Positions 6,807 to 27,249 of a stretch of 64,000 bases of DNA are shown here, in pieces. Source of the DNA: Bacillota bacterium (GTDB lineage: Bacteria > Bacillota > Negativicutes > CTSoil-072); the NCBI GenBank assembly GCA_017889545.1, contig JAGFZV010000008.1:134874-198873 (forward strand), read 5' to 3'. The translations under genes were made by a program, and so were the position numbers. The notes beneath the pieces were generated by a model. That model saw only the letters and a list, made by a program, of their open reading frames with translations. It did not search any database and was not told the DNA's origin. How positions within the stretch are numbered: position 1 is the stretch's first letter; each line of letters opens with the position of its first letter.

Positions 6807-6811
6807 TCTTT
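6807..6811. repeat. Left copy of 5-bp target-site duplication
   Basis: The sequence is TCTTT, directly outside the left transposon end, and is identical to 36289-36293. It starts one nucleotide after the dnaB stop codon. Confidence 0.95.
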
Positions 6812-7488: not shown

Positions 7489-9021
7489 ATGAAAATTGAA
7501 ATCGGAAAATTTACACTTGAATCGCTGACAACTGGAATGTACAGCGAGCCAGAGTCGTGCTATCGGGAGTATATCCAGAATGCGGTAGACTCCCTTGATA
7601 CAGCACTTTGTTTAGGTATGATGCAAGCAGAGGATTTCCGTATTGAGGTTATAGTAGATAGTGAAAGGCAAGAAATCAGCATCAAAGATAATGGGATCGG
7701 CATCAAAAAAGATTTGGTGCGAAAAACGCTCCTTGATATCGGAAATTCAACTAAGTTACATACAAGAAATCGCGGATTCAGAGGAATAGGCAGGCTTGGC
7801 GGACTTTCCTATTGCAAAAAGCTAAGCTTTTGCACGACTGCTGCCGGCGAAAGCGAGAAGACGTTAATTACGTTTGACTGCGAAAAATTAAAGGCTCTTT
7901 TGGTGCCGGGACAAAGCACAGAACATAATTTACAGAGCGTGATTGAAGCAGTTACTGATGTTCGCGTTATGCAAGAACAAGCATCGACGCATTACTTCAT
8001 CGTCAAGATGGAAGGTGTCGATGATATTTCCGCGCTGTTGGATTTAGAGACCGTCAAGGATTATATCTCTCAAGTTGCCCCTATACCTTTTAGAGACAGG
8101 TTTTATTGGGGACGAGAGGTGAAAGCAAAGCTAGTCGAGAATGGTATCACCGTCTCCGAATATCCGGTGTTCATCGGCGAATCTTTTGAATCTCTTTCTC
8201 AGGTGTACAAGCCGTATAAAAATTCGTTTGAAACGAACTCGCGCGCTGGGGTGTCAAAGGACGAGGTGCTTGGGCTGTCCTTCTTTAGGATAAACGATAG
8301 CACTCAGCAACTAATTGCCTATGGCTGGTATGCCGATACGGATTTTTCAGGAACATTGGTTGATGATCGAATTTCAGGCGTTCGGGTCCGCCAAGGGAAT
8401 ATCCTGATTGGCAATCAAAGGACGTTGGCTCCTTACTACAAAGAATCTCGTTTCAATGGCTGGGCAGTCGGGGAGGTTTATGTTGTTTCCCCAAAATTGA
8501 TTCCGAACGCGCGGCGTGATGATTTTGAGAAGAACACTACATTCTCGGAGTTTACAATCGGATTGAGGAATACTGTTGGTACGGAGATTGCGGACAAAAT
8601 CCGCACGGCATCAAAAGTCAGAAACAACCCAATGCAAAAAACCATCAGGAAGGTTCAGCGCGATGTTGCCAAGGTTGAAGAACTTCTGACAACCGGCTTT
8701 CACTCATCCGCTGAAAAAGAACAGGTCGCGGCAGAACTTGCTGCAACACGGAGAGATTTGTATGTAATCCCAAAGAATGCGCCGACAGAAGTTGTCGAGC
8801 AAAAAACCGCTCTTATGGAACGCCTTACCTCTCTCTCGGCTGAAGTTGACGAATCTGCGAACTTTAGGGTTAAAAAGGATATTCCCTCCAATTTCTCGAA
8901 ATCTGAGAAAAAGGTTGTTCAGGCAATGATGGAAGTCTTGTCGCGCAACTTCGAACGGACGACTGTTGATAGCCTTTACAGCGAGTTCTTGGAGGAACTC
9001 AAGTCGGGAGGTAAAAAATAA
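7489..9021 (+). CDS. Hsp90/GHKL-type ATPase, first copy
   Basis: This 510-residue protein has an N-terminal GHKL ATPase fold of the Hsp90 type. The visible motifs are the N-box REYIQNAVDS (N31), the Mg/ATP aspartate in DNGIGI (D67) and the lid GFRGIGR (about 97-103). The middle region resembles Hsp90 middle domains. The C-terminal third is helical and charged. It is shorter than HtpG and does not look like a housekeeping chaperone. It is a close paralogue of the last gene of this operon, with the same first 35-residue pattern and the same motif spacing. Its stop overlaps the next gene by one base (TAATG). GHKL ATPases joined to helicases are known from predicted restriction-like systems (prokaryotic para-MORC proteins), so a DNA-remodelling or sensing role is plausible. 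Confidence 0.85.
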   Translation: MKIEIGKFTLESLTTGMYSEPESCYREYIQNAVDSLDTALCLGMMQAEDFRIEVIVDSERQEISIKDNGIGIKKDLVRKTLLDIGNSTKLHTRNRGFRGIGRLGGLSYCKKLSFCTTAAGESEKTLITFDCEKLKALLVPGQSTEHNLQSVIEAVTDVRVMQEQASTHYFIVKMEGVDDISALLDLETVKDYISQVAPIPFRDRFYWGREVKAKLVENGITVSEYPVFIGESFESLSQVYKPYKNSFETNSRAGVSKDEVLGLSFFRINDSTQQLIAYGWYADTDFSGTLVDDRISGVRVRQGNILIGNQRTLAPYYKESRFNGWAVGEVYVVSPKLIPNARRDDFEKNTTFSEFTIGLRNTVGTEIADKIRTASKVRNNPMQKTIRKVQRDVAKVEELLTTGFHSSAEKEQVAAELAATRRDLYVIPKNAPTEVVEQKTALMERLTSLSAEVDESANFRVKKDIPSNFSKSEKKVVQAMMEVLSRNFERTTVDSLYSEFLEELKSGGKK

Positions 9022-10988
9022 TGATGCAAGTTTATCCCGAAAAATACGACCAACTAGAACTGTCGGTTGAAGAGAAGTCATTCCTTCGGACTGTTGAGCG
9101 GGCTTTCTCTGATGAGGAGATGGCCTACTTTGTGCTTCATATTAATCCGCGAAGGAAAGACATTGGGGACGGGAAACATCCGGAATTGTTCTATCTGTTG
9201 CTCGTTGACAAAGGGATACTCTTGTTTAGATTTTTAGACGCATCTAATGAGACGGTCGCAAAGATCACCATCAAAGCAATTGGCAATCCGTTTGTTTACA
9301 ATATGCTGGTGAGTGACATTGTCAAACGCCTTGAGGAAAGTCGCTATCTTACTAACGAAAGCGGCAAGTTGCGCTTTGCGTTGAATGTATGCTTCGTGTT
9401 GCCTAAATTTGAGGCGGCGCAAATTTGCCGCCTGTTTGATAACACCGAACAAGAGTTTTGCCGTGACCATGTCCTTTTTGAAGACACAATAAAGCAGATA
9501 AGGAAGAGTGGTGCTGACAGAATTAAGAGCTATCTTGGTGTTGGTGATATTCTTCAAGAAGACTTAGTCAACAATGTGTTCCAGCGGCTCTGCCCTGAAA
9601 TTACGATCCCGCGTAAGTACATTCTGGACGAGAATGGTGCAGTTGGGGGAGCAGACGGAGCGGTGGACACTTCATATAGAGCCGTCCAATCGTATAGATT
9701 GGATAATAAGCAGATTGATATTATCAATAAGATTGCTAAAGGCAATCAGTTAATACTTGCTTGTGCGGGCAGCGGCAAGAGCGTCTTGCTTATTTCTAAA
9801 TGCTTTAAATTGGCGAGCCTCAATCCAAGCGAGGAGTTCCTCATTACTTGTTACAACAGGAACCTAAACAATTATTATCAATGGGCTATTGCTCAAGCAG
9901 GCTTTTCTGATAAAAATGTTCTTTGCTCAACTTTCTTTGGCTTTTGTAGATTTCTGTTAGAAAGTAATGGAATTTCTCTTCCGTCCTCTTACAAAAATGA
10001 CGAATACTATGATAAGCTGTTTATTTTAGCAAATAATGCCTTGTCGGAAGGAAGAATCCGTCAGCGTTATTACGGTATCTTCATTGATGAAGTTCAGATT
10101 TTCAGACCTGAGTGGTATCGGTTTTGCTTCAATTTATTGAAAAGCAAAAATGCAGAGGAGCATTTTTTTACGATTGCCGGTGATAAGTCACAGGATATAA
10201 AGAACAATATCAAGCATGGGAAAGCACCGTGGCAAGGTGGCGGTGAAGCCTATCCTGAATATAGAGGTAAAACACTCCCGATTGAAACAAACTATCGTAA
10301 TTCAAAGCCAATAAACGATGCTATCGATCGCTATGTTGCCGTTGCGAAAGAAATGGGAACAAAGCTGGGAGTTGACCTAACTTCAGACCCCGAACTATTT
10401 CTGCGGGGAACTGCATATAGAAAGGGAAACTCGCCTACTTTGATTGAATTGGCTGACCTAAGCAATGAAGGCGAAGGAAAAGCAATCGGAGATGCCGTTC
10501 GTGATCTTATTGAAAACAAGGGTCTCAGCGAAGTCGACATTGCTGTAATTCTTTATAATAGGGCGGCTCGGTACACAACCAAGGGGTGGAAAACACACTA
10601 TTATCAGTTGTTGCCCTTTATCAAAAGGTACTTTTTAGCACAAGGATGGGAGTATCCAGCTATCTTGATTTCGGGCGAATCCGAGGGTGTGACTTACGGC
10701 TCAAGAAGAGGTGTGACGATTGCTACCATTGAAGGATCGTTAGGGCTTGATTTCAGAGCGGTTGTCATAGCAGGTTTGCGGCCACTCGGAACACTTGAAA
10801 AAGCTAGAACATTTGACGAGTTTACGACAGCAACGCCCGAACAATTGCTAGATAAACTCGAAGCCTTTAAAAAGAACATCAACTTCCTTTATACGGGTTG
10901 CACGAGAGCAAAAGACGAACTGACCATTATCCTCTCAGCTCCTAAAGGGGAATCAATATATATGGATTTAATTAGACAATCAATGTAG
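9021..10988 (+). CDS. SF1 (UvrD/Rep-like) helicase with unique N-terminus
   Basis: This 655-residue protein is a UvrD/Rep-type superfamily 1 helicase. An N-terminal region of about 230 residues matches nothing I recognise. The helicase part then shows Walker A ACAGSGKSVLL (about 247-253), Walker B FIDEVQIF (about 355) and a C-terminal motif near IEGSLGLDFRAVVIAG, with the TGCTRAKDEL segment at the end. It starts at an ATG overlapping the previous stop codon, with GGAGG upstream. Together with the NERD helicase (17456-19087) it gives this operon two separate SF1 motors. DNA unwinding or translocation is inferred from the motifs; the substrate is unknown. Confidence 0.85.
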   Translation: MMQVYPEKYDQLELSVEEKSFLRTVERAFSDEEMAYFVLHINPRRKDIGDGKHPELFYLLLVDKGILLFRFLDASNETVAKITIKAIGNPFVYNMLVSDIVKRLEESRYLTNESGKLRFALNVCFVLPKFEAAQICRLFDNTEQEFCRDHVLFEDTIKQIRKSGADRIKSYLGVGDILQEDLVNNVFQRLCPEITIPRKYILDENGAVGGADGAVDTSYRAVQSYRLDNKQIDIINKIAKGNQLILACAGSGKSVLLISKCFKLASLNPSEEFLITCYNRNLNNYYQWAIAQAGFSDKNVLCSTFFGFCRFLLESNGISLPSSYKNDEYYDKLFILANNALSEGRIRQRYYGIFIDEVQIFRPEWYRFCFNLLKSKNAEEHFFTIAGDKSQDIKNNIKHGKAPWQGGGEAYPEYRGKTLPIETNYRNSKPINDAIDRYVAVAKEMGTKLGVDLTSDPELFLRGTAYRKGNSPTLIELADLSNEGEGKAIGDAVRDLIENKGLSEVDIAVILYNRAARYTTKGWKTHYYQLLPFIKRYFLAQGWEYPAILISGESEGVTYGSRRGVTIATIEGSLGLDFRAVVIAGLRPLGTLEKARTFDEFTTATPEQLLDKLEAFKKNINFLYTGCTRAKDELTIILSAPKGESIYMDLIRQSM

Positions 10989-11002
10989 GAGGTGAGTAAT
11001 CG

Positions 11003-12082
11003 ATGACTACATACGATGATAAAACTAAGTGCGCAATGGAGTCGGGCAGGCGTTTTATCTTGCCCACATTCAAACAGTGCGACGAAGCAACATTCAAGGC
11101 CAGTTACATCGTTGCGTCAGATGTCAAATGTGACGGAAAAATCACCGCACTCTTCGACTTGATAGTTTTGGGAAGCATTGAAGCTGCTGAACTTGATGTC
11201 AAGGGCAGATTTGTTTGCCTTGGCAAGTGTGAAGTGAGCGGCACTATTCTTGTGCAGAACGAAATCTGGGTGAATGACGTCCGAGCGAAAAATATTGAAA
11301 CTAACGATAGGATTTTTGCCCAGGAAATAGATGGTGAGACAATCATTGCCGATGGAAGTATCGTTGTTGGAAAAATTCTCGCAGTTGAGAAACTTGCCAA
11401 GAGCGAAAAGAACATATTGTGCGGGGAGACTGCTTATGGTTCCGGCAAGGTCGTAGCAAACACAATCATTACTGGCGAGCCGCTTGACTTGGATGACGGC
11501 GAAGAGTCAATTGCATCTCCAAGTACATATATGCCAAGTCCCGTACAGACGCAATCTGTAGCTGCTTCTTCCAAGTCATCAAAGCCAGTTGACTTGATTG
11601 CATGTGGCGAAACGGAATATGCGACACTTGGAAACTATATAGGGTACTTGGATTTCTTAATTTCTGTTGCCTATGATGACGAAAGCAAAGATAAGTATAC
11701 GCGTTGGAAAGTGGTCTTAGAAGAAGCAGAAAGAGTCTGTCAAAGTGGTATCAACGGATATTCGAATATCGCTATAGTGATATGGCTGACCGAAATAACC
11801 ACTTCTTCCTATTTTAAGAACTGGGACAAGATAACGGACCTATTCGATGTCTTCGAAAAACATTTCAAAGATTTGGTAGAAGATTCGAGTGATTTTGTAA
11901 CTTGCTCTATCGACAGTTATGGGGAATGGTTAGAAGCCCTATCAATACTAAGTAGATTTGGCGCTTTGGTTGAAGGAACCGTATCTCGCACAGCTTTTGA
12001 ATTGGTTGTGTCCAACCTTGGACTAAAAGCAAAGTTCGTTTCTGACAGACTTAATGAAAAGGGGTGGCAGGCAAATGGCTAA
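11003..12082 (+). CDS. Bactofilin-like beta-helix protein with helical C-terminus
   Basis: This 359-residue protein has two parts. Residues about 30-170 show short repeating hydrophobic strands with glycines and valines (VKCDGKI, VLGSIEAAELDVKG, SGTILVQNEIWV). This pattern is typical of the right-handed beta-helix of bactofilins (polymer-forming DUF583). A Ser/Pro/Gln-rich linker (about 170-195) leads to a helical domain of about 160 residues rich in Trp and acidic residues, which I do not recognise. Bactofilins form filaments without nucleotides. Its presence among helicase genes is unusual and suggests a scaffold. It has a strong AGGAGGTGAG ribosome-binding site and overlaps the next gene by 8 nt. 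Confidence 0.65.
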   Translation: MTTYDDKTKCAMESGRRFILPTFKQCDEATFKASYIVASDVKCDGKITALFDLIVLGSIEAAELDVKGRFVCLGKCEVSGTILVQNEIWVNDVRAKNIETNDRIFAQEIDGETIIADGSIVVGKILAVEKLAKSEKNILCGETAYGSGKVVANTIITGEPLDLDDGEESIASPSTYMPSPVQTQSVAASSKSSKPVDLIACGETEYATLGNYIGYLDFLISVAYDDESKDKYTRWKVVLEEAERVCQSGINGYSNIAIVIWLTEITTSSYFKNWDKITDLFDVFEKHFKDLVEDSSDFVTCSIDSYGEWLEALSILSRFGALVEGTVSRTAFELVVSNLGLKAKFVSDRLNEKGWQANG

Positions 12083-15000
12083 TAACAGAGAAGTATTGGC
12101 GAACAATATCATCGATAGATTCGTCGCTGCGGTCTCTGGCACAGATAAGGAACAATGGCTATTTAATAGCCCGGACGACCGTATATTCGTTGGTAAGTTG
12201 TCTCCTCAGAGCGCAGAGGATAATTTTTCGTCTAGTGTTCTTATTAAACAAATAAGCGTGGACTTCCGAATCCCCAAGAAGGATATCGGTATTGCGGAGT
12301 TGCAAATCTATCCCCAAGGAAACTTCTTCTTTAGGGTGTTGCCTACCCTTAACCAGCAACGCGAATTTTTTCTCAATAACCTTATCTCCACCTTCAACCC
12401 TGAGACAGGGTTTGTTGACTTTTCCACACTCGCCGAGGCGTTCAATAAAAGGGTGTTGACTGCGGAAATGCAGGGGCATAAAGTTCAGCTTTTACCCGTC
12501 TACGAAAAGATAGCCATCGACAAAGATAGCGTTAGCATTGGGTTAAAGATTTCCGACATTTATAATCCGTCCTTTGATTGCGGAAGTGTTCCGTTGGACT
12601 CTCTGTTCTATACCGAAATCAAGGAGCAGGTGGAGGCTCTCTGTGCGGAGACGCAAGCCCGTTCTAATATTATGCCATGTCAATTCAGAGACAAACTAAA
12701 AATTGATGATTTGCTCTCCGAAGAGTCATGGAAAGCGTATTGCAATAGACAGACTTCACGTGGGGAACCGAGAATGTTCCCTAGTTTTAACTATTCTTTG
12801 AATGTGAGTGTTAAGGGCAGTGGTGATAACCTCAGTGTTACTGTAGCTCTCAGCAATGAAACACCTTGGGGTGACGAGACTGCTGGCTTTGGTCAGTCAT
12901 CTGCCAAGAAAGATAAATACAGGGTAAATACCCTGTTTAATTCGGGAATTAAAGTTAAATGCTTGAACACCGAATTCATCCCGATTGAACTGGACTACTT
13001 TGCCGATGATTACAAGTACGATAGATATGTCTATGCACTGGGCAATAACTGCAATGTCTCTTATGACAAAGTAAAGATGGAGATACAAACTACCCATGTG
13101 CCGTACTTCATTCAGAACCGGCTGAAGACAAACGATAAGATGGCTATTAAGTTTGATGATCTGATTGCCGATCCGATAGTTACGCTAAAGAAGATTCACA
13201 CAAAAATGCTGACAGAGGCAGGAAACTGGAGGATTGATTTGGAACGGCGCAAACTTCTTCCGCAGGGTGTTGAAGGTGCGCTCACGGCACTTGGCGTAAA
13301 ACAGTTCGGCAATGAGATTGACGCCTTTAATATGGAAATCTCGCGGTTCGCTACGGGAATTGACTTGCTCAGCAAACACAATATGATTTGTAATGCTTTC
13401 CGTTATATGAACCAAGCCTTTAAGGAAGCAGCCAAGGGCAAATATTACAGTTGGCGTCTGTTCCAGATTGTCTTCATAGTTTGCTTGATCCTTGATGTAG
13501 TGGCACACGAGCAGGATTTAATGCTTGAAGATGATATCAGAAGTAAGGCGAAAACCGATGATATCGACATCCTTTACTTTCCAACCGGCGGTGGTAAAAC
13601 CGAGGCATTCTTAGGAATCCTTGTGTTTAACTTGTTCTTTGATCGTCTGCGTGGCAAGAACTATGGCGTAACAGCAATTCTGAAGTATCCACTCCGCTTG
13701 CTCTCGGTGCAGCAAGTTCAGCGTGTTGCGAATATTCTTGCTACTTCTGAGGTGATCCGTCAAGTAAAAAAACTGGGCGGCAGCCAATTCAGTCTCGGTT
13801 ACTATGTTGGGGAGGGAAATACACCTAATAATATTGATAAAGACCTGCAAAGGACTTTGATTGAACTGTCACCAAACGAAGTTGATGAAAAGTACCGTTT
13901 GGTCGATGTTTGCCCTTTTTGCGGACAGGAAACAGTTCATGTGGTCTATGACGCAGATGCCAACTCTTTGCGGCACATATGCTGCAACCTAGAATGTGCT
14001 TCACAGGGTATTATTCCGTTGTTTATGGTCGACAACGATATCTATAGATACTTACCATCTGTCATCATTTCCACGGTTGATAAGATGACCGCCATAGGAT
14101 TCAACTCGAACTTCCACAACATTTTATGCGGTGCTGAGTATGAATGCCCGAAGCACGGTTTTACAGCGAAAACAAAGTGTCTTGCAAACGGTTGCCAGTG
14201 CGACCCTGATGATTTCAAGAGAGTGCCGATGAAAGACCCGGCTCCGACACTAATGATTCAGGACGAGTTGCATCTTATAAGAGAAGCGTTAGGTGCTTAC
14301 GATGCCCATTACGAAACCTTGATTGAGTATTTCATTCGGAATCTGTCAGGTTGCGACAGAGGCATTAAGGTTATCGGTGCAACGGCGACTATTTCTGCTT
14401 ATGCAGAACAAGCCAAGCATCTTTATTGGAAAGGTGCGATCCGATTTCCTGCCGCCTCGCCATATCTTGACCATAACTTCTACTCGTTCATTGACAAGGA
14501 TGACATTGGCAGAATCATTGTTGGGTACGCGCCATTCGGAAAGGCAATCGTGAACAGCGTTGCGTATTCTCTACAATATCTTAAGCGAGTGGTCTGGAAT
14601 CTCTACGAAAATCCGCAGGATGTTTTGGGTTTTGACGGTATAGAGATTGATGGTACTGAAGATGAGCGGATTGCTGAAGTAAAAAACCTATTAGAGGAAT
14701 ACTGGATAATCCTCGAATATAACAACGTCAAACTCGAAAGCAACAGGGTTTTACAGGCGCTGGAAGATCCTATCAATACGGAATTGAATAAAGAGGGCGT
14801 TCAGCCATTGACAGCCAAAAAGATGACTGGCGACGACTCTTTCCAAGAGGTCAGGGCAACACTCTCGACTATTGAACATGCGGAAAGTGTGGTGCATGGC
14901 ATTGATTTCAATATGATTGCTGCGACAAGTATGATTTCACATGGTGTGGACGCTGACAGATTTAACCTCATGCTGTTTTACGGAATCCCTGGTAATACAG

Positions 15001-15551
15001 CAGAGTATATTCAGGCTTACTCGCGTGTCGGAAGAAAGCATACAGGCGTGGTCATTGACATCATGCGCCCGTCACGAGAAAAAGACCAAAGCTATCTGAA
15101 GAACTTCATAAAGTTCCACGAATACAAGGATATCCTTGTAGATTCTGTTTCAATAAACCGATGGGCAACAAAAGCAGTCGAGAACACTCTGCCGGGAGTT
15201 ATTTCAAGCCTTATTCTCAACTATTACCTTTATGTCCTGAAACACACGACAGGTATGAGCGACATCAGCAAATATTCGCAGTTGAAGACAGCTCTGCTTG
15301 CTGAAAAGATAACTGCGGCAGAGCTCAAGACCCACGCTTATGGTGTTTACAAGTGTTCTGACGCTGACAGTGCGGTCGGTAACCTTTATCGGCAGACAAT
15401 TGATAGATTGATTGATGCACTTGTGGACGACCTAAAGAATGGCTCTTTTGACGCTAATACATACATTACGGAAGTATTCAAGAACTGCTATTTTCGAGTG
15501 ATGTTAAGTCTTCGTGATACCGATCAACAACTTATAGTTGAGATGAAATAG
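12075..15551 (+). CDS. DrmA-like superfamily 2 helicase
   Basis: This 1158-residue protein is a large SF2 helicase of the DISARM DrmA type. It has an N-terminal region of about 450 residues, then Walker A PTGGGKTEAF (about 502), a DELH box (about 730), and motif III ATATIS. The C-terminal helicase motif includes SHGVDADRFN (about 955) and YSRVGRKHTG. Cysteine pairs between the Walker A and DELH boxes (CPFCG, CCNLEC, CPKHG, CLANGCQC) look like inserted zinc ribbons. The ATG at 12075 has AAGGGG upstream and overlaps the previous stop; an in-frame ATG at 12054 lacks such a site. The next gene is its usual partner, a DUF1998 protein. DNA translocation or unwinding is the expected activity. Confidence 0.87.
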   Translation: MANNREVLANNIIDRFVAAVSGTDKEQWLFNSPDDRIFVGKLSPQSAEDNFSSSVLIKQISVDFRIPKKDIGIAELQIYPQGNFFFRVLPTLNQQREFFLNNLISTFNPETGFVDFSTLAEAFNKRVLTAEMQGHKVQLLPVYEKIAIDKDSVSIGLKISDIYNPSFDCGSVPLDSLFYTEIKEQVEALCAETQARSNIMPCQFRDKLKIDDLLSEESWKAYCNRQTSRGEPRMFPSFNYSLNVSVKGSGDNLSVTVALSNETPWGDETAGFGQSSAKKDKYRVNTLFNSGIKVKCLNTEFIPIELDYFADDYKYDRYVYALGNNCNVSYDKVKMEIQTTHVPYFIQNRLKTNDKMAIKFDDLIADPIVTLKKIHTKMLTEAGNWRIDLERRKLLPQGVEGALTALGVKQFGNEIDAFNMEISRFATGIDLLSKHNMICNAFRYMNQAFKEAAKGKYYSWRLFQIVFIVCLILDVVAHEQDLMLEDDIRSKAKTDDIDILYFPTGGGKTEAFLGILVFNLFFDRLRGKNYGVTAILKYPLRLLSVQQVQRVANILATSEVIRQVKKLGGSQFSLGYYVGEGNTPNNIDKDLQRTLIELSPNEVDEKYRLVDVCPFCGQETVHVVYDADANSLRHICCNLECASQGIIPLFMVDNDIYRYLPSVIISTVDKMTAIGFNSNFHNILCGAEYECPKHGFTAKTKCLANGCQCDPDDFKRVPMKDPAPTLMIQDELHLIREALGAYDAHYETLIEYFIRNLSGCDRGIKVIGATATISAYAEQAKHLYWKGAIRFPAASPYLDHNFYSFIDKDDIGRIIVGYAPFGKAIVNSVAYSLQYLKRVVWNLYENPQDVLGFDGIEIDGTEDERIAEVKNLLEEYWIILEYNNVKLESNRVLQALEDPINTELNKEGVQPLTAKKMTGDDSFQEVRATLSTIEHAESVVHGIDFNMIAATSMISHGVDADRFNLMLFYGIPGNTAEYIQAYSRVGRKHTGVVIDIMRPSREKDQSYLKNFIKFHEYKDILVDSVSINRWATKAVENTLPGVISSLILNYYLYVLKHTTGMSDISKYSQLKTALLAEKITAAELKTHAYGVYKCSDADSAVGNLYRQTIDRLIDALVDDLKNGSFDANTYITEVFKNCYFRVMLSLRDTDQQLIVEMK

Positions 15552-15563
15552 GAGGAAAAAGAA

Positions 15564-17453
15564 ATGCCATCTGACAAAAATACAATGCGCCGTGGAGTGC
15601 ATCAAGCCTTGTATAAGTACCTGCCTGGCAGTTGGGTGGACTTTTCGCAGAGCGGTGGTGGAGTTACTTATGCAGTCCATGTCGACCGTTGGAACAGCGT
15701 TCACCTGACCGGAATTAACAGTAAGCGACTTCTTCGTGTGGTGAACCAGAGAGTAGGCGAATTCAAAGACGGAAGCCCCGACGGGGCGGCTTCTGTTGTG
15801 AACTTTTCTTCAATCATAAACGATGAGAACTATTACGTTTTAACTCCAAAGGTCAGTGAACAAGAGCGCGCCATTGTTACTTCTGTGAAGCCTTGGGTGT
15901 TCGTATGCAATTCCTGCGGGCGGGTGCGGCAGTATTACAGCTATGATGAATTCAAGCGGCGCGAACACGAATATTGCGACGTTTGTGGAAAACATATGAC
16001 ACAGTTGCGGATGATCCGGTTCTGCAAGTGCGGATACGCTGACGGCATTTTTGTCCCCAAATGCCAAAACAAAGAACACGGCACGAAGTATATGACGAGA
16101 CGCGGCAGCGGGCTTGACTTTGTATGCAAGAAGTGTGGGCAGAAAGCGGCTTTGCCATTCTATTGCCCTGATTGCCGACAAAAACTCGATATAAAGCCGG
16201 CACTGGACTCGTCACACTACTTTCCGTTCACACTTTCCCTTATCGACCTGCTTGATAAACGGAAAGACGTGTTTTTGGGCAATGAAGAAAATAGCCGAGG
16301 TGAAAAAGTTGTCATCGGGCAATATTTAGGGTTGATACCGCAAGAAGAATACGCCGCTATAATAGCCAAGGGGAATATAATGCAAGACGATGAATTTGAA
16401 GCCGCTTTAGCAAAGGAAGCCGATGGTTTGCGCGCCGCTGGTCTTACAGAAGATATTATTGCGACAGTTATTGACGCGAAAAGGCGGACAAACCCGAATA
16501 GCAAGATATTTGAAGCAATCGAACAAGTCGGTAAAGGTCTCTCTGTCGTGAGTAATGACGACATCAAACCGATTGCTGAGGAGATTCTTGAGTATGATGA
16601 ACTCGTACACGCAAAAGTAGTTCTATCCCTTGAAGATGCTGAAGTAGATGCCGAACTGGTCAATGACGGTATTAAGCCTGACTATGTCGGTATCTCGAAG
16701 TCGCTGGGTTTCTCCAATGTTCAGATTTGCTCTGGGGTCCCAATCGTCTTTGCGGCATATGGATACACCCGCAAAGAACGAGAATGCAAGGAAGGAGTTA
16801 GACTTCATGGTTTTCCGCAAGAGATGGAGAAGAAGAACATTTACGCCACTCGGCTTGAAACGGAAGGAGTGCTGTTTGAACTCGACCGTCGAAGGGTTTT
16901 GAATTGGCTGTTGGAAAACCAGTTGATTCAGAAACAAGATTTGCCGCAGGATATGAGCGACCGCGGTATTAAGATGTGGTTTTTAGACCGCATCCGTCTT
17001 GACCGTATTACTCCGTTCACGCCGATAGATGAAGTTGACTCATATGGTATGATTACAAAGGAAGTATATACTCTGATACACAGTATCTCTCATGCTTTGA
17101 TAAACGAAGCGTCTGAGATATGCGGATTGGATAAGAGTTCTCTTTCGGAATATATCCTGCCGAATATCCCGGCAGTGTTTGTATATTGTTCGAATTCTCA
17201 GGGATTCAATATGGGAGCCTTATACAGCGCGTTTCAGTCGCATTTTGACCGGTGGCTCAAACATGCCAAGGAATGGTCGAAGAAGTGCATCTTTGACCCA
17301 ATCTGCATTGACAAGGAAAAGGCTTGTGCCGGTTGCCTATTTTTAAACGAGGTATCTTGCCAGCATTTCAACAAAGATTTAGACCGGGGCTATCTCTGCG
17401 GATACTTCGATAAGCAAAAGCAAGAGAAACTAATTGGTTTCTGGGAGGATTAG
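15564..17453 (+). CDS. DrmB-like DUF1998 zinc-binding protein
   Basis: This 629-residue protein matches the DrmB pattern. An N-terminal zinc-binding block has CNSCG (about residue 114), CDVCG, CKCG and further CxxC pairs (CKKCG, CPDC). A C-terminal DUF1998 domain carries HSISHALINEAS, VFVYCSNSQGFNMG and a cysteine-rich end CAGCLF...CQHFN. In DISARM, DrmA and DrmB form a complex that engages DNA, and adjacency to a DrmA-like helicase supports the same here. The gene lies 12 nt after the helicase with an AGGAGG site. No methyltransferase or PLD nuclease is nearby, so this is not a classical DISARM locus. Confidence 0.87.
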   Translation: MPSDKNTMRRGVHQALYKYLPGSWVDFSQSGGGVTYAVHVDRWNSVHLTGINSKRLLRVVNQRVGEFKDGSPDGAASVVNFSSIINDENYYVLTPKVSEQERAIVTSVKPWVFVCNSCGRVRQYYSYDEFKRREHEYCDVCGKHMTQLRMIRFCKCGYADGIFVPKCQNKEHGTKYMTRRGSGLDFVCKKCGQKAALPFYCPDCRQKLDIKPALDSSHYFPFTLSLIDLLDKRKDVFLGNEENSRGEKVVIGQYLGLIPQEEYAAIIAKGNIMQDDEFEAALAKEADGLRAAGLTEDIIATVIDAKRRTNPNSKIFEAIEQVGKGLSVVSNDDIKPIAEEILEYDELVHAKVVLSLEDAEVDAELVNDGIKPDYVGISKSLGFSNVQICSGVPIVFAAYGYTRKERECKEGVRLHGFPQEMEKKNIYATRLETEGVLFELDRRRVLNWLLENQLIQKQDLPQDMSDRGIKMWFLDRIRLDRITPFTPIDEVDSYGMITKEVYTLIHSISHALINEASEICGLDKSSLSEYILPNIPAVFVYCSNSQGFNMGALYSAFQSHFDRWLKHAKEWSKKCIFDPICIDKEKACAGCLFLNEVSCQHFNKDLDRGYLCGYFDKQKQEKLIGFWED

Positions 17454-17455
17454 AT

Positions 17456-19087
17456 ATGGCTATCATGCATCCTGCTCAAATACCCGAAGGTTACCACGCT
17501 TATTCCGAGGTGAAGTTTTTCAATGCCTGCAAAGAACAGTTGCCTAATAAGTACCACGTCTTTTATTCAGTCCGTTGGTACTCCACGAATAACGGTGTCA
17601 GGGAAGACAGCGAATGCGACTTCCTAATTTTTAATCCAGACTATGGGTTTCTTTGTGTTGAGGTTAAGGGCGGTACAGGAATGCGGGTCGAGGACGGAGT
17701 GTGGTATCTTATTGACCATGATGGCGAAAGAAAACTGAAGAGGTCTCCTTACGAGCAAGCTGAACAGAGTATGCGATTTTTTAAGAAGTATTACGAGGAT
17801 GAAGTGGAGTCTCAGTTTTCTGGTATATACGGGTGTGCCGTTGCTTATCCGAATTATTCAATCACTGCTCCTATAACAATCGGCTCGCCGATGGAAATGA
17901 CCATCGACCTTTCAACGCTAGGTGACTTACAGAAGCGGGTGACCGAAATATTCCGCTATTTCCGCGCTCAGCGTCGCACTGCGTCGTCTTTCCTATCACC
18001 TGACAGCCAAAAGAAGTTTATTAGTATCGTTAACAAGCGCATTTCTCTGTCTATTGCCGCTGGAGCCTTGATACAAGACAAAGAGCGTGAACTGCTCGAA
18101 ATAAACCGTACCCAAGACACTGTCATTGACTTACTGGCACATTATCCAAAGGCGTTTATTGTCGGCGGCGCAGGGACGGGCAAGACTTGGATTGGCATCA
18201 AAAAGATACTGCGTTGTGTGCAGTGCAACGGTCAGGCCCTATATCTCTGCTATAACAAGGCATTAGCAGAAAACGTGGCAGCTATTGTCTCAAACGACCG
18301 TGCTGATTGCCATAACATTGATTCGTTCGCCTATGCCCTTCTTGGTGGAAAAACTGCAACCGCACCCGAACAGAATGGCTGTAAAGAATACAGCAACTTA
18401 ATCAGTGATTTGCCTGCCTTCAAAAAATACGACTTGGTGATAGTTGACGAAGGGCAGGATTTTACAGAAGATTGGGCGTTTTGTGCTAATCTGATGATAA
18501 AAGATGGCGGTTCGCTATATGTGTTCTATGATGAGTGTCAGAACATCTTCAAGCGTAACTTTGGCGATAAATTCTTCATCGACGAACCGCCGTTTGTGCT
18601 TAGATACAACATAAGGAATACTGCCAACATCTATAGGTATGCCCAAGAGCAGACCAACTTAGGATTAGATACAATCGCCAATCAGATTGAGGGTGTTGAA
18701 CCTGATTACCGAAAGTTCACGCGCAAGGCGCAAACCGTATCATTCATTGATTCGGTTATAAATAAGCTTGTAAACAAAGAAGGTGTTAGTCCGCACAAGA
18801 TTGTTATCCTTAGTAACCGAAGGAAAGACAACTCAATCTTGAATGAAACCGTTGCGGTAGGCGGACACCGTCTTGGCTACGAAAAGATACTACCAGACGC
18901 CAATTCGATAGCCTTCAGAACCATACAAGGCTTCAAAGGACTTGAATCGGATGTCGTTATTTATATTAACCATACATACAAGAACGAGCCGAAAACTGAT
19001 AGCATCCGTGCCACTCTCTACACGGCACAAACGAGGGCGAGATTCTATCTGTATGTATTGGATTTTGAAGAAAATGGGAGATCTTAA
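17456..19087 (+). CDS. NERD-nuclease/SF1 helicase fusion
   Basis: This 543-residue protein fuses a nuclease-related (NERD) domain to a UvrD-type helicase. The NERD part (about 15-120) has the PD-(D/E)XK-like residues in SECDFLIF (about 50) and CVEVKGG (about 68). The helicase has Walker A GGAGTGKTW (about 238), Walker B VIVDEGQDF (about 330) and the C-terminal RTIQGFKGLESDVV motif. It begins 2 nt after the DUF1998 gene with GGAGG upstream. Such fusions occur in prokaryotic defence islands. In this operon it is the only protein with a recognisable nuclease motif, so it is the most likely effector. Cleavage activity is an inference. Confidence 0.85.
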   Translation: MAIMHPAQIPEGYHAYSEVKFFNACKEQLPNKYHVFYSVRWYSTNNGVREDSECDFLIFNPDYGFLCVEVKGGTGMRVEDGVWYLIDHDGERKLKRSPYEQAEQSMRFFKKYYEDEVESQFSGIYGCAVAYPNYSITAPITIGSPMEMTIDLSTLGDLQKRVTEIFRYFRAQRRTASSFLSPDSQKKFISIVNKRISLSIAAGALIQDKERELLEINRTQDTVIDLLAHYPKAFIVGGAGTGKTWIGIKKILRCVQCNGQALYLCYNKALAENVAAIVSNDRADCHNIDSFAYALLGGKTATAPEQNGCKEYSNLISDLPAFKKYDLVIVDEGQDFTEDWAFCANLMIKDGGSLYVFYDECQNIFKRNFGDKFFIDEPPFVLRYNIRNTANIYRYAQEQTNLGLDTIANQIEGVEPDYRKFTRKAQTVSFIDSVINKLVNKEGVSPHKIVILSNRRKDNSILNETVAVGGHRLGYEKILPDANSIAFRTIQGFKGLESDVVIYINHTYKNEPKTDSIRATLYTAQTRARFYLYVLDFEENGRS

Positions 19088-19091
19088 TAAC

Positions 19092-21104
19092 ATGGAAGAC
19101 ATTCTTCTGATAGAGCCAAATTACTCAAATAAATACCCCCCTTTAGGACTTATGAAAATCTCAACCTTTCATAAGCAACTAGGTGATTGCGTTGTTTTCG
19201 CAAAAGGAAAACTTACGGACAATCTGGTGGAGAAAAGGTGGGACAGGGTCTATGTTACGACGCTGTTTACTTTCGAGTGGGAGGAAACTAAGAAGAGCAT
19301 AGAGTATGCGCTAACTGTGGTCAAGGACAAAAACAAAGTCTTTGTAGGCGGCATTATGGCCACTCTAATGCCTGAACTGTTTATAAAAACATTCCCGACC
19401 ATTACTCTGATAAAAGGGTTGTTGAATCGGGATGGAACAGTGGGACTACGAGACGAGAAGTGCATTGACCGCTTAACCCCTGATTATGATATTCTTGATG
19501 ACATAGATTACAAGTATCCGGCAACCGACGCTTATTTTCTCTACATGACTCGTGGGTGCGGCATGAAATGCCAGTTTTGTGCTGTGCAAACTCTTGAGCC
19601 GGAGTATATTCCGTATATTTCAATAAAGGATCAAATTGCAGAAGTTGACAGACGGTTCGGGGCAAAGCGGAACCTTCTCCTCATGGATAACAATGTTCTG
19701 CGCTCAAATAAGTTTGACAGTATTGTCGATGAACTGATTGAATTAGGCTTCGGAAAGGATTGTACTTATCCGAGTCCTCGCACGGGTAAGCCTTTGAAGC
19801 GATATATTGACTTTAACCAAGGTCTTGACGCTAAGTTGCTCACAGAACATAAAGCAAAGCGTCTAGGAGAGCTTGCAATAAACCCTGCGCGAATAGCCTT
19901 TGATCATATAGAAGACAAGGAGCAATACAAAAAGGCTTTGGAACTGTGCGCCAAAAACGGAATTAAATATCTGTCTAACTACATCCTATATAACGGCGAG
20001 GATTTTACAGGCAAGGGGCAACACTACCATGCTGACACACCAGAAGACTTATATATCCGCATGAGGGTGTCTATGGACTTTTGTGACGAACTCAATGATA
20101 AATATGGACACAACGGGAGGGTTCACATATTTTCCTTTCCTATGAAATATATACCTTTGAACGCGACCGACAGGTCTTTTGTCGGCACTCATTGGAACAA
20201 AAAATACCTTCGTGCAGTGCAGAGGATGCTTATCCCCACGCAAGGTAAAGGTGTATCAACACGGTCGTTTTTTGAGGCTGATTTCGGCAACACTACTGAA
20301 GAGTTTATTGAGAACCTTGCCATGCCTGAAGAACTTCTTGGTTTGCGTGGACATTTCGTAGAGCGAGCCAATGAATCTAAAGAGGAAAAGAAAAAGCGTT
20401 ATGCCCAATGGGAAATCAACCACGCTCGAATTTTTGAATGGACCCAACTGTATCGCTCTTTAGGAGATGACTTTACAAGCTATGTGGAAATCATCAAGGA
20501 CAACGACTTCTCGATTCATAATTATAAGCGTATAACCTCACCCACCATTAGGAAGATGTTTATTCATAACTTGTCGTACCTAAGTATTTTGAGGAACATT
20601 GAAATGCTCGGCACAGAGATGCTTGCGTACATTAAGGTTGAGTTTCCAACGATGTACCGTGAATTGTTGCGGTATGTAATCAAATCCGAACATACGCAGT
20701 TTTCTTGCATGAAAGGAATGCTGACACTTCAGGGCAACGCTTATATAGCTGATGTTATAAGAGCCTTTATAGAGGAACCATATTTGACGACGAATGTCTT
20801 TGACGCTCTGTACAAAGCGCAAAAAGATTTGAAAAAGGTTGTTCTTGACACTCGAAGCCTTGATATCGCATTACGATACAGAATGGCAAACGCCATTTCT
20901 GATACTGAACTGAGAAATATCATGCGTTTGGGCATTGAGGGTGATGAGAAAAAGATTGAAACGCGGCTTTATCAGAAATCTAGGAAACTCAAGGATGTCT
21001 TGCGTGAAAAAAACAAAGATGAGATAGCAGGTGATGTTATTCTCGATAAAATCGAAGAGGTAATCGGTCTGCTCCAAAAGGTATACAGGAAGGAAGTAAA
21101 ATAA
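19092..21104 (+). CDS. Radical-SAM protein with B12-domain-like N-terminus
   Basis: The protein has 670 residues from the ATG at 19092; a longer frame reaching 18942 overlaps the helicase gene and is unlikely. The N-terminal 130 residues begin ILLIEPNYSNKYPPLGLMKI, the layout of cobalamin-binding-like domains in B12-type radical-SAM enzymes. The [4Fe-4S] motif CGMKCQFC lies at about 155-162. The C-terminal 300 residues are helical, charged and unrecognised. The gene is 4 nt after the helicase and 1 nt before the second Hsp90-like gene, so it is an integral operon member. Radical-SAM chemistry in a DrmA/DrmB operon is unusual. The substrate could be DNA, a nucleotide or a partner protein; the sequence does not tell. 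Confidence 0.78.
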   Translation: MEDILLIEPNYSNKYPPLGLMKISTFHKQLGDCVVFAKGKLTDNLVEKRWDRVYVTTLFTFEWEETKKSIEYALTVVKDKNKVFVGGIMATLMPELFIKTFPTITLIKGLLNRDGTVGLRDEKCIDRLTPDYDILDDIDYKYPATDAYFLYMTRGCGMKCQFCAVQTLEPEYIPYISIKDQIAEVDRRFGAKRNLLLMDNNVLRSNKFDSIVDELIELGFGKDCTYPSPRTGKPLKRYIDFNQGLDAKLLTEHKAKRLGELAINPARIAFDHIEDKEQYKKALELCAKNGIKYLSNYILYNGEDFTGKGQHYHADTPEDLYIRMRVSMDFCDELNDKYGHNGRVHIFSFPMKYIPLNATDRSFVGTHWNKKYLRAVQRMLIPTQGKGVSTRSFFEADFGNTTEEFIENLAMPEELLGLRGHFVERANESKEEKKKRYAQWEINHARIFEWTQLYRSLGDDFTSYVEIIKDNDFSIHNYKRITSPTIRKMFIHNLSYLSILRNIEMLGTEMLAYIKVEFPTMYRELLRYVIKSEHTQFSCMKGMLTLQGNAYIADVIRAFIEEPYLTTNVFDALYKAQKDLKKVVLDTRSLDIALRYRMANAISDTELRNIMRLGIEGDEKKIETRLYQKSRKLKDVLREKNKDEIAGDVILDKIEEVIGLLQKVYRKEVK

Positions 21105-21105
21105 G

Positions 21106-22578
21106 GTGGACATTACAATAGGAAAATTTACGCTCGAAACCCTTACATCAGGTATGTATGAGCGTCCCAAAGACATATACCGTGAATACATTCAGAACGC
21201 CGTTGATTCAATCGATATTGCCGTGTCTGAAAAGTTGGTGAAAGAAGATAAGGCTCAAATAGACATCGAAATAGATAAAGAAGGGCGTTGCATTAGGATA
21301 TCTGACAATGGAACCGGTATTGGCACGGAAAACGCCACTCGGTACTTGTTAGACATCGGACACTCCCCTAAACGGTTCACAAATGCACGAGGCTTTCGAG
21401 GCATCGGGCGTCTAGCTGGACTTGCTTATTGCAATACCCTTATTTTTGAGACCTCCGCCGCTGGCGAAGACAAACGGACAATCATTGAATTTGATGCAAA
21501 AACTCTATGTGAGCGTATGCTCAATGAACGAGTTGATATCGACTTGCTCTCACTTATTTCCGAGGTGGTTACTATTAAGGTTGAGCAAGAGGCACGGACA
21601 AAGCATTACTTCAATGTTGTTATGATTGGAGTCGAAAACACAGATGGAATTTTAGATTTGGATAAAGTTCAGCAATACCTTGAACAGGTTGCACCGGTCG
21701 ATTTTGAAAAGTCCTTTGGATGGGGCAAAATCATTAAGTCGAAACTGAAAGTTTTCGCTTTTGCGCCGTCAAGCTATAATATTTTTGTGAGCAGCGGTGA
21801 CCATCGTGTTCCCATAATGAAAGCCTATCAGGATACGGTAATTTCTGACCGCCTTAGAAAACTTGAAGATAATATTTCCGAGATAGAAACTAAAGAGTTC
21901 ATCTACGATGGGGAAAAAATTGCTTATCTTTGGTATGCAAAAACAAGTTTCTACGGTACACTTCAAGACGAAGCAATCAAAGGAATCCGCGTAAGGAAAG
22001 GCAACATTCTCATTGGAGACAAAACAACTTTGAATCATATTTTTAAGGACGAGCGGTTCAATGGTTGGCTGCTCGGAGAACTTCACCTTCTATCCTCTAG
22101 ACTGATACCCAATGCTCGAAGAGATGAGGTAGAGAAGAACGCGGCGTACTCTGCTATGATCGCCGATTTACGGGCTTGGGCTGAAGGAATTTCCTATGAG
22201 ATAAGGAAAACCTCAAACCAACGGAGTTCGGATAAAAAAGCCCAGAGAATCATTGAGTTTGCTCGGAACGAAATAATACAAGATATTGAAGCTACTACCA
22301 CAGTCGTTGTACCAGAGGTAACACTGCTTAACAAAGCCGAAATTGAGCAAGTGAACCATACAGAATTGGTAGCGGCTCTTGACATCATCATCGGCGCACA
22401 GCAGCCAAGCACGAAGTACAAGGCCCTTAATCTGCAATCGAACATTACTGTCGAGCAGAAGAAGGTCTTAGCGCGCGTCTTCGACATAATTTGTAGCGAT
22501 GAAACCCAGCAATCAAACGCTCTTATAAAGAGAATAATCTGCGAGTTTGTTCCGAAGTCTGTGGCTATTGCGCGGTAA
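21106..22578 (+). CDS. Hsp90/GHKL-type ATPase, second copy
   Basis: This 490-residue paralogue of the first operon gene has the same motifs at the same positions: N-box REYIQNAVDS (N31), DNGTGI (D67) and GFRGIGRLAGL. The start is a GTG one base after the radical-SAM stop, with GGAAG upstream. The C-terminal third diverges most from the first copy. Both catalytic regions look intact, so each could be an active ATPase. Placement of two paralogues at the two ends of one operon suggests a heteromer or two separate clients rather than redundancy. It is the last gene of the operon; decayed sequence follows. Confidence 0.85.
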   Translation: MDITIGKFTLETLTSGMYERPKDIYREYIQNAVDSIDIAVSEKLVKEDKAQIDIEIDKEGRCIRISDNGTGIGTENATRYLLDIGHSPKRFTNARGFRGIGRLAGLAYCNTLIFETSAAGEDKRTIIEFDAKTLCERMLNERVDIDLLSLISEVVTIKVEQEARTKHYFNVVMIGVENTDGILDLDKVQQYLEQVAPVDFEKSFGWGKIIKSKLKVFAFAPSSYNIFVSSGDHRVPIMKAYQDTVISDRLRKLEDNISEIETKEFIYDGEKIAYLWYAKTSFYGTLQDEAIKGIRVRKGNILIGDKTTLNHIFKDERFNGWLLGELHLLSSRLIPNARRDEVEKNAAYSAMIADLRAWAEGISYEIRKTSNQRSSDKKAQRIIEFARNEIIQDIEATTTVVVPEVTLLNKAEIEQVNHTELVAALDIIIGAQQPSTKYKALNLQSNITVEQKKVLARVFDIICSDETQQSNALIKRIICEFVPKSVAIAR

Positions 22579-22604: not shown

Positions 22605-22769
22605 ATGGGTAGCGTGCTGATGAAATCAATTATTGGCAGATTTGACAATAACTCATTCAAGACATTTTTTCAGAGGATGCTTGACCAATCAGATTTTTAT
22701 AACGGAAAAACAAAAAAGTTCTCAAATATTGATGATAGAATATTTGCACGTCCTGCGGAAAGATTTTAG
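22605..22769 (+). CDS. Small 54-residue hypothetical protein, possibly truncated
   Basis: A short frame starts at ATG 22605 with a GGAGG site upstream and ends at TAG 22767-22769. It encodes MGSVLMKSIIGRF... with no recognisable domain. It lies 26 nt after the second Hsp90-like gene and directly before gene debris, so it may be the intact start of a gene whose remainder has decayed. I cannot assign a function. Confidence 0.4.
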   Translation: MGSVLMKSIIGRFDNNSFKTFFQRMLDQSDFYNGKTKKFSNIDDRIFARPAERF

Positions 22770-22783
22770 CAAATTGCAGATAA

Positions 22784-23031
22784 ATTTTTTTATGTGCTAA
22801 TCACCTTACATATTGTGGGAACGTTGAAGTAGATCCGCTTCGTGCGAAAATTCAATTTAATGACTTGTTTGATGAAGTGTAAGCCATCTTAACATCAATC
22901 CGGCGATAAAAGTGAAGATTGCTATTGAAGTTAAAGCGGAAGCGGAAGTTGGCTTTAGCGATAGTTTGCAACGCACAATCAAAGAAAATTGCAAAGTTTT
23001 AAAATTTAAAACGGCAGAGTTTTATAAATAA
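22784..23031 (+). pseudogene. Remnants of one or two gene 3' ends
   Basis: Two short frames without starts are visible. One ends at 22882 and encodes ...VEVDPLRAKIQFNDLFDEV. The other runs from about 22888 to 23031 and encodes INPAIKVKIAIEVKAEAEVGFSDSLQ followed by RTIKENCKVLKFKTAEFYK. The second resembles the C-terminal tail of DUF499-type ATPases found in defence loci, which end in a similar 'vRTvkENcrtLkF' block. Neither has a start codon or body. They look like leftovers of genes deleted between the Hsp90 operon and the orphan genes. The DUF499 link is from memory of the family tail and is tentative. Confidence 0.55.
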
Positions 23032-26550: not shown

Positions 26551-26676
26551 GCGCGGCCAATATTATAGGAAGCGTTTGAGAAAAGTCGCAAAAACATCGG
26601 GGCAATATATTGCGAGCTTTACGTAAATAGTAAAATAAACTGCACACAAATAAAAAATTAGAAGGGGACAATTTAT

Positions 26677-27249
26677 ATGAAGAAACGGCATGAAAAAATA
26701 AAAAGGGATGACGGATCAGTAAGACCTTCGGGTTTAGTTACGGTGGATTATGCCAAATTAGATTGTACCATCATTGATGAAAAAACTAATACGGTTTTCG
26801 GAAGGCCTTGGGTTACATTGGTGATAGATATTTTTTCCAAACATGTCACCGGTTATCATATTAGCTTTGAGCCACCTGACGCATTAACGCCATCGACTTG
26901 CCTTGATCAGCCATTATATTCTAAGTACCCAAATAATGAATGTGCAGACAGCGGTATGGAATGTCAAATAGAAGGTGCTACAGGAAATCATGTCATTATT
27001 GATAAAAGCGAAAGCTTGATGACTGATATTCAAGGAAACTGCATAAATGGAATTAGCGAGCGCCTTTTCAATCAAATCAACACAAAGCTACAACACCTGC
27101 TTTACGAAACATCTTTTGCAAATTTATGTGGAAACGATGAAGGCAGCGCGGAACATCATTTGTGCATTAGTTATGAAATGCTGGATTGTCTGCTGCGTAA
27201 AGCGAAATTCAGTGATTGTTTTAATTACATAGATGGAGGTAGGAATTGA
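26677..27249 (+). CDS. Shortened TnsB catalytic-core protein
   Basis: This 190-residue protein aligns with the catalytic core of the downstream TnsB: VDYAKLD against MDHTKMD, GRPWVTLVIDIFSK against GRPWLTLCIDVYSR, and ISERLFNQINTKL against VERFFGSINTQL. The DDE residues correspond to D24, D109 and E128. The spacing between the last two is 18 residues instead of 35, because a core strand of the fold is missing. The N-terminal DNA-binding domains and the C-terminal TnsC-interacting tail are absent. It is unlikely to cut DNA. It ends 1 nt before tnsA in a continuous operon with a GAAGGGG site, so it appears to be expressed. It may be a decoy or a degenerate relic. Confidence 0.75.
   Translation: MKKRHEKIKRDDGSVRPSGLVTVDYAKLDCTIIDEKTNTVFGRPWVTLVIDIFSKHVTGYHISFEPPDALTPSTCLDQPLYSKYPNNECADSGMECQIEGATGNHVIIDKSESLMTDIQGNCINGISERLFNQINTKLQHLLYETSFANLCGNDEGSAEHHLCISYEMLDCLLRKAKFSDCFNYIDGGRN

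What the first reader, a model, noticed from the sequence alone, without database searches (positions are those of the whole stretch)
7489..22578. Eight-gene Hsp90/DrmA-DrmB/NERD/radical-SAM operon, candidate new defence system
Eight genes run in one direction with 1-14 nt gaps or overlaps over 15.1 kb. They encode two GHKL ATPases, two SF1 helicases, a DrmA-like helicase, a DUF1998 protein, a bactofilin-like protein and a radical-SAM enzyme. Only the DrmA-DrmB core is shared with DISARM; the DISARM methyltransferase and DrmC PLD nuclease are missing. I know of no named system with this content. Carriage as transposon cargo supports a defence role.
Basis: partly seen in the sequence, partly recalled or inferred. 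Interest (0 to 1): 0.93.

Follow-up and report, generated by a model that had tools for sequence, protein, structure and literature searches.

The report
DISARM-like operon with exchangeable radical-SAM module
Eight genes on a bacterial jumping element form a conserved and apparently unnamed candidate anti-virus system: a DNA-unwinding core related to the known DISARM defence, joined to a radical-chemistry enzyme plus an Hsp90-like ATPase that evolution has repeatedly swapped between unrelated DNA-attack gene sets.

Summary
The operon is real. Eight intact co-directional genes (7489-22578) encode GHKL1, an SF1 helicase, a beta-solenoid protein, DrmA, DrmB, a NERD nuclease-SF1 helicase, a radical-SAM enzyme (rSAM) and GHKL2. 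They are cargo of a 29.5-kb Tn7-like transposon (6812-36288, TSD TCTTT) just 3' of dnaB. DrmA forms its own clade beside DISARM class 2. DISARM methyltransferase, DrmC, DrmD and DrmE are absent, and no sampled DISARM locus carries rSAM, GHKL or NERD homologues. The new point is that rSAM-GHKL is a module of its own: in 86 loci it sits beside unrelated DNA-translocase/nuclease cassettes (ParB-SNF2 28, DrmAB 19, Pbe-like 10, HerA-NurA 7), with at least 21 partner changes on the rSAM tree and a visible breakpoint between NERD and rSAM. Best reading: a DISARM-like restriction system whose methyltransferase slot is taken by a B12-type rSAM-GHKL module, perhaps marking self DNA. The defence role is well supported by context; the rSAM chemistry is unproven. 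I found no published name in the papers I could search.

The parts
7489..9021 (+). GHKL1: Hsp90/MORC-type ATPase of the effector cassette, 510 aa
   Evidence: HATPase_c_3 1.5e-12; HSP90 family 5e-11; orthologue just upstream of UvrD in 14 other loci
9021..10988 (+). UvrD-like SF1 helicase, 655 aa
   Evidence: UvrD-helicase 1.2e-7; PADLOC NERD+UvrD model 4e-25; Walker A and Walker B (DE, Q) invariant in 19 rows
11003..12082 (+). Beta-solenoid protein with helical C-terminus (weak FapA match), 359 aa; fastest evolving, sometimes absent
   Evidence: FapA 0.002, below cut-off; AF2 pLDDT 84.9; no confident PDB match
12075..15551 (+). DrmA-type YprA-family SF2 helicase, 1158 aa
   Evidence: PADLOC DrmA 2e-162; own clade 100/100, sister to DISARM class 2; motifs invariant in 18 rows
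15564..17453 (+). DrmB-type MZB/DUF1998 protein, 629 aa
   Evidence: PADLOC DrmB 4e-53; MZB 1.8e-5; Cys pairs conserved in 20 rows
17456..19087 (+). NERD nuclease fused to SF1 helicase, 543 aa
   Evidence: NERD 3e-11, UvrD_C_2 5e-7; D55, E69, K71 and Walker motifs invariant in 12 rows
19092..21104 (+). Radical-SAM enzyme with N-terminal B12-binding-type domain, 670 aa
   Evidence: Radical_SAM 4.7e-5, B12-binding 0.0056 (both below Pfam cut-off); CxxxCxxC invariant; model pLDDT 89.8, nearest PDB MgmA, OxsB, AprD4, MiaB
21106..22578 (+). GHKL2: Hsp90/MORC-type ATPase paired with the rSAM, 490 aa (GTG start)
   Evidence: HATPase_c_3 4e-9; 'directly after rSAM' GHKLs cluster on the tree
22605..22790 (+). 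Remnant of a Shedu-type nuclease gene that is intact at the same position in L024
   Evidence: 62 aa, 40% identity; L024 gene is SduA_C 1.3e-7
6807..6811 (.). Left target-site duplication TCTTT, next to the dnaB stop codon
6812..6879 (+). Tn7-like left end: TGTTATTTTCCCC and three 18-bp putative TnsB sites
   Evidence: 7 sites in the window, 0.4 expected by chance
25612..33026 (+). Tn7-like transposition genes: extra tnsC and cut-down tnsB, then tnsA, tnsB, tnsC, tniQ
   Evidence: TniB, TnsA-like_N, rve, Mu-transpos_C, TniQ; ORFs
36157..36288 (-). Tn7-like right end with four putative TnsB sites; ends ...AACA
36289..36293 (.). Right target-site duplication TCTTT

Best explanation
A mobile DISARM-like anti-invader system made of two modules. 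(1) Effector cassette GHKL1-UvrD-solenoid-DrmA-DrmB-NERD: DrmAB loads on foreign DNA with single-stranded ends and translocates; the UvrD-like protein and the NERD helicase-nuclease unwind and cut it; GHKL1 acts as an ATP-driven dimer clamp or assembly switch. (2) Partner module rSAM-GHKL2: a class-B (B12-type) radical-SAM enzyme with its own GHKL ATPase, taking the place of the DISARM methyltransferase and most likely marking host DNA, so that the cassette spares self. SHOWN: conserved operon, intact catalytic motifs, purifying selection, modular exchange, transposon cargo, absence of DISARM methyltransferase and nuclease. INFERRED from families: helicase and nuclease action, DNA targeting by DrmAB. 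HYPOTHESIS: that the rSAM product is the self mark. My sub-estimates: conserved functional system 0.97; defence against mobile DNA 0.85; DrmAB-NERD as the restriction arm 0.7; rSAM as DNA-marking arm 0.35-0.4.
For: Eight-gene order in the window and 12 other loci. Invariant catalytic residues and purifying selection. DrmA/DrmB homology to a complex whose ATPase is stimulated by unmethylated DNA (PMC9142583). NERD D-E-K motif invariant. rSAM-GHKL beside other DNA-acting cassettes. At least 21 partner changes on the rSAM tree. Breakpoint in L031 and L060: UvrD, DrmA, DrmB and NERD 58-70% identical to the window, rSAM 47-53%, GHKL2 35-42%. Pbe, one of the alternative partners, naturally pairs with PT-modification or methyltransferase genes and is often solitary (PMC6459918). 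18 of 86 loci have a DndB/DpdB-type gene nearby. Phage rSAM homologues occur near C5-methyltransferase, PAPS-reductase and ParB-like genes. B12-type rSAM fold, nearest MgmA, a C-methyltransferase. Tn7-like cargo and integrase or serine recombinase beside the operon in L031, L033, L039.
Against: No experiment exists. No substrate is known for this rSAM; the nearest folds include enzymes acting on protein, antibiotic and tRNA. DndB is absent from the DrmAB-type genomes except G415, so the DNA-modification link comes from relatives, not from this operon. GHKL1 and the solenoid are missing in some members (L056, L060, L113 for GHKL1). GHKL2 is broken in L026. Many partner loci are metagenome bins.
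Confidence: 0.5

Rival explanations
1. Sensor/alarm reading: rSAM-GHKL makes a modified nucleotide or other small product, or senses infection and switches on whichever effector cassette it is linked to; it does not mark self DNA.
For: The module pairs with mechanistically different effectors, as a shared sensor would. Hsp90-type GHKLs switch on ATP binding (general knowledge). Viperin-like rSAM enzymes appear among the weaker structure matches.
Against: Viperin matches have E about 0.02, far behind B12-type enzymes; viperins lack the N-terminal B12-type domain (general knowledge). No obvious ligand-binding effector domain was found in the cassettes.
Confidence: 0.25
2. The rSAM modifies a protein partner (for example a cassette helicase or GHKL) or a nucleic acid other than host DNA.
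For: Top structural match MgmA methylates a glutamine; MiaB and RimO modify tRNA and ribosomal protein S12.
Against: Partners change repeatedly, so a single protein substrate in the cassette is hard to maintain; the GHKL itself remains possible.
Confidence: 0.2
3. A DNA repair/housekeeping operon, like MrfAB, rather than defence.
For: DrmA and MrfA belong to the same helicase family (PMC12458937).
Against: DrmA falls with DISARM models and DISARM proteins; sparse distribution (no other match at 40% identity or more in 399 Bacillota genomes); mobile carriage; alternative cassettes match defence models.
Confidence: 0.08
4. A transposon-fitness operon that helps the Tn7-like element itself.
For: It is cargo between the transposon ends.
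Against: Relatives sit beside unrelated integrases or serine recombinases and in one IMG/VR contig. The neighbourhoods of the other relatives were not examined for Tn7 genes.
Confidence: 0.04

Closest known systems
DISARM class 2 (DrmE-DrmA-DrmB-DrmC, with or without methyltransferase)
   Same: Separate DrmA and DrmB genes in the same order; DrmA is the nearest relative group (about 30-37% identity; sister in the tree, 99/97)
   Different: No methyltransferase, DrmE or DrmC; adds UvrD, solenoid, NERD-helicase, rSAM and two GHKLs; distinct monophyletic DrmA clade
ARMADA, BRIGADE and TALON (PMC12458937)
   Same: YprA-family helicase in a multi-gene defence array; TALON also has a NERD nuclease
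   Different: Those systems normally have OB-CON-DUF1998 fused to the helicase, and ARMADA has BrxHII and PglX; the parts of the paper read here describe no rSAM or GHKL partner
MORC/paraMORC restriction operons (PMC2292703)
   Same: GHKL ATPases next to helicases and nucleases, often with methyltransferases
   Different: No radical SAM is mentioned there; different helicase families; DrmAB not described
PbeABCD / Dnd phosphorothioate systems (PMC6459918, PMC10853773)
   Same: PbeA- and PbeC-like genes form one of the cassettes that pair with the same rSAM-GHKL module (L009, L011); modular modification/restriction logic
   Different: No Pbe genes in this operon; DndC is not a member of the radical SAM superfamily (PMC10853773)
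HerA-NurA cassettes, including Marinitoga camini virus 1
   Same: Same rSAM family next to HerA and NurA
   Different: Different translocase and nuclease; no DrmAB

Membership tests
DISARM | DrmA helicase plus separate DrmB (DUF1998/MZB) gene | tested here: met
DISARM | DNA methyltransferase (DrmMI or DrmMII) | tested here: not met
   No methyltransferase among the eight genes or in the other cargo ORFs scanned
DISARM | DrmC PLD nuclease | tested here: not met
   No PLD hit in the operon
DISARM | DrmD (class 1) or DrmE (class 2) | tested here: not met
   No DrmD or DrmE model hit among the eight genes
DISARM | NCBIfam DrmA/DrmB curated cut-offs | tested here: not met
   DrmAS 349.6 bits against 950; DrmB family 86 against 240
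DISARM | Restricts phage, with DNA methylation as self mark | not testable with these tools
   needs bench work
[quoted passage not shown]
   No such genes in the operon; definition
GHKL (Hsp90/MORC/paraMORC) ATPases | GHKL ATP-binding motifs (N-box, DxGxG, G2) | tested here: met
   E27, N31, D34, D67, G69, G71 and an RGFRGIGR-type motif conserved
GHKL (Hsp90/MORC/paraMORC) ATPases | Assignment to a named MORC or paraMORC subfamily | not tested
   no subfamily model was used
Radical SAM superfamily, class B (B12-binding) | CxxxCxxC motif and B12-type Rossmann domain before the radical-SAM barrel | tested here: met
   the Pfam scores themselves are below cut-off
Radical SAM superfamily, class B (B12-binding) | Actual cobalamin binding | not testable with these tools
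   needs purified protein
Tn7-like transposon | TnsA, TnsB, TnsC, TniQ, ends with TnsB-type repeats, 5-bp TSD | tested here: met
Bactofilin | Bactofilin fold or sequence match for gene 3 | tested here: inconclusive
   Beta-solenoid model, no confident PDB match; weak FapA hit only

The most novel reading that the evidence does not exclude
The rSAM-GHKL pair is the hub of an undescribed superfamily of restriction-like systems in which B12-type radical-SAM chemistry, not a methyltransferase or phosphorothioation, marks self DNA, and at least four unrelated translocase/nuclease cassettes (DrmAB, Pbe-like, HerA-NurA, ParB-SNF2) read that mark.
Probability: 0.3. Interest if true: 0.93.

Novelty: new variant of a known kind. 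Interest (0 to 1): 0.78.

Why it matters
If the rSAM marks DNA, it would be a new self/non-self chemistry and could explain some 'solitary' Pbe cassettes that lack a known modification partner. It gives a directly testable question: what does this rSAM modify?

Tried and rejected
ARMADA, BRIGADE and TALON were considered and rejected: different helicase architecture and partner genes. Membership of DISARM proper rejected: methyltransferase, DrmC, DrmD and DrmE missing and NCBIfam cut-offs not reached. DndB as a required partner rejected for the DrmAB type: found in only 1 of 19 genomes. A bactofilin assignment for gene 3 could not be confirmed. PDB sequence search with the rSAM profile and with GHKL2 gave nothing. 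Ten literature searches found no paper describing this combination; the library holds only openly licensed papers and few preprints, so a published name elsewhere is not excluded.

Full report
OBSERVATION. The eight ORFs at 7489-22578 are all on the + strand and tightly spaced: GHKL1, UvrD-like SF1 helicase, beta-solenoid protein, DrmA, DrmB, NERD-SF1 helicase, radical SAM (rSAM; ATG at 19092) and GHKL2. Domain calls come from Pfam, PADLOC and NCBIfam. DrmA and DrmB are strong PADLOC matches (2e-162 and 4e-53) but stay far below the curated NCBIfam DISARM cut-offs, so they are distant members.

TRANSPOSON. The operon is cargo of a Tn7-like element of 29,477 bp (6812-36288) with TGTTATTTTCCCC ends, seven 18-bp putative TnsB sites (0.4 expected by chance, none of 100 shuffles reaching seven) and a perfect 5-bp TSD, TCTTT. 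TnsA, TnsB, TnsC and TniQ are present. The element lies just after the dnaB stop codon. In relatives the operon sits directly beside a Tn916-type integrase (L033), a tyrosine integrase (L031) or a serine recombinase (L039), so mobility is general but not bound to Tn7.

CONSERVATION. Among these, the order UvrD-solenoid-DrmA-DrmB-NERD-rSAM-GHKL2 recurs, and GHKL1 lies directly upstream of UvrD. All eight genes in order occur in the window and in L016, L024, L025, L027, L030, L031, L033, L035, L038, L039, L040 (last gene cut by the contig end) and L043. In L030 and L043 the divergent solenoid gene was assigned by clustering, not by direct comparison; DrmB of L027 is split over two frames. L097 (a Desulfovibrio bin) and L026 lack an intact GHKL2; L056, L060 and L113 lack GHKL1. 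An independent DrmA search of 59 genomes gave one match, and it too has UvrD-solenoid-DrmA-DrmB-NERD-rSAM-GHKL2. An independent GHKL2 search of 399 genomes found five other genomes, and all five have the rSAM next door. Walker motifs of DrmA and UvrD, the DrmB cysteine pairs, the NERD D-E-K, the GHKL motifs and the rSAM CxxxCxxC are invariant or nearly so. Against the closest operon, dN is 0.06-0.13 with dS above 1.2 or saturated for all eight genes.

RELATION TO DISARM. In a DrmA tree the operon's proteins form one clade (18 rows, 100/100), sister to haloarchaeal DISARM class 2 (99/97); several DISARM rows are long branches. Most of the plasmid DrmA loci I sampled have the DISARM layout: a DrmE- or DrmD-position gene, usually a PLD nuclease and often a methyltransferase. 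None of 14 such or similar DrmAB loci has a match at E 1e-3 or better to GHKL1, UvrD, solenoid, NERD, rSAM or GHKL2. In 399 Bacillota genomes nine others have DrmA-like matches, all at 37% identity or less. ARMADA, BRIGADE and TALON (PMC12458937) differ in helicase architecture and partners.

THE MODULE. rSAM with its GHKL is not tied to DrmAB. In 86 loci, the neighbours within 11.5 kb were ParB-like/SNF2 with a small PD-(D/E)xK-like protein (28), DrmAB (19), Pbe-like genes (10), HerA-NurA (7) or a PIN protein (2); 18 have a DndB/DpdB-type gene and 60 a recognised GHKL. Identities of the cassettes: PbeA/PbeC models at better than 1e-200; SNF2, ParB_N, DndB and DpdB; HerA and NurA through their homology (E=2e-83 and 1e-24) to genes so annotated next to an rSAM in Marinitoga camini virus 1. 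The PD-(D/E)xK label of the 135-aa protein is my reading of its sequence. On the rSAM tree partner labels change at least 21 times, and well-supported branches force at least four changes for the DrmAB label (quick method, some long branches). L031 and L060 show a breakpoint: UvrD, DrmA, DrmB and NERD are 58-70% identical to the window (the solenoid is 45% in L031 and was not found in L060), whereas rSAM is 47-53% and GHKL2 35-42%. GHKLs that directly follow an rSAM cluster on the GHKL tree (2 changes against 14.6 in shuffles), apart from cassette GHKLs. So GHKL1 belongs to the cassette and GHKL2 to the rSAM.

STRUCTURE. The rSAM model (pLDDT 89.8, pTM 0.82) is nearest to B12-type enzymes: MgmA (1.7e-9), OxsB, AprD4, then MiaB and RimO. 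The solenoid model (84.9) has no confident PDB match.

PHAGES. 446 viral-contig stretches encode rSAM relatives. Some of the best 80 have the bacterial GHKL/ParB-SNF2 or HerA layouts; many others are short phage genes, 64 of 65 checked with a CxxxCxxC motif, near terminase genes, ParB-like proteins, C5-cytosine methyltransferases and PAPS reductases (the ParB-like label of the phage protein and of one terminase cluster is by inspection, Pfam gave nothing). This is suggestive of a DNA-modification setting, no more.

MECHANISM. DrmAB in DISARM prefers DNA with a 5' overhang, and its ATPase is stimulated by unmethylated DNA and less by methylated DNA (PMC9142583). I infer that here DrmAB recognises invading DNA and that the NERD helicase-nuclease and UvrD process it. 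Because no methyltransferase is present, and because Pbe, an alternative partner of the same module, is known to pair with phosphorothioation or methyltransferase genes and is often 'solitary' (PMC6459918), the simplest role for rSAM-GHKL2 is the marking arm. A sensor or protein-modifying role is not excluded.

LIMITS. No function was tested. Many partner loci are metagenome bins, and some genes were placed by ORF clustering. The rSAM survey kept only the best 80 loci, so the partner counts describe that sample. The paper library is partial, so an existing name cannot be excluded.

Noticed in passing
6780-6812: The Tn7-like element lies immediately 3' of dnaB, with the stop codon one base before the TSD; this may be a target site recognised by its TniQ protein.
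   Followed up: partly
25612-27249: An extra tnsC-like gene and a cut-down tnsB-like gene precede the full tnsA-tnsB-tnsC-tniQ set, perhaps a relic of a second Tn7-like element.
   Followed up: no
33582-35788: An HD-domain (dGTPase-like) gene followed by a nucleotidyltransferase-like gene between tniQ and the right end; possibly a second defence pair.
   Followed up: no
23061-25402: Three cargo ORFs of 144, 181 and 248 aa without any Pfam match.
   Followed up: partly
L024:13504-14712; L016:13534-14735; window 22605-22790: A variable accessory nuclease follows the operon: Shedu-type SduA_C in L024, Mrr in L016, a decayed Shedu-like remnant in the window.
   Followed up: partly
L105 (Streptomyces cellulosae plasmid): A DISARM class 2 type locus lies beside TnsA-like, transposase and ATPase genes, so a Tn7-like element may carry DISARM there too.
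   Followed up: no
L034, L042, L083, L091, L096 and others: A four-gene cassette ParB-like / 135-aa PD-(D/E)xK-like / SNF2 helicase / ParB-like next to rSAM-GHKL in many phyla looks like a further unnamed defence system.
   Followed up: partly
L148-L212: Phage genomes carry a short rSAM of the same family next to ParB-like, terminase, C5-methyltransferase or PAPS-reductase genes; function unknown.
   Followed up: partly
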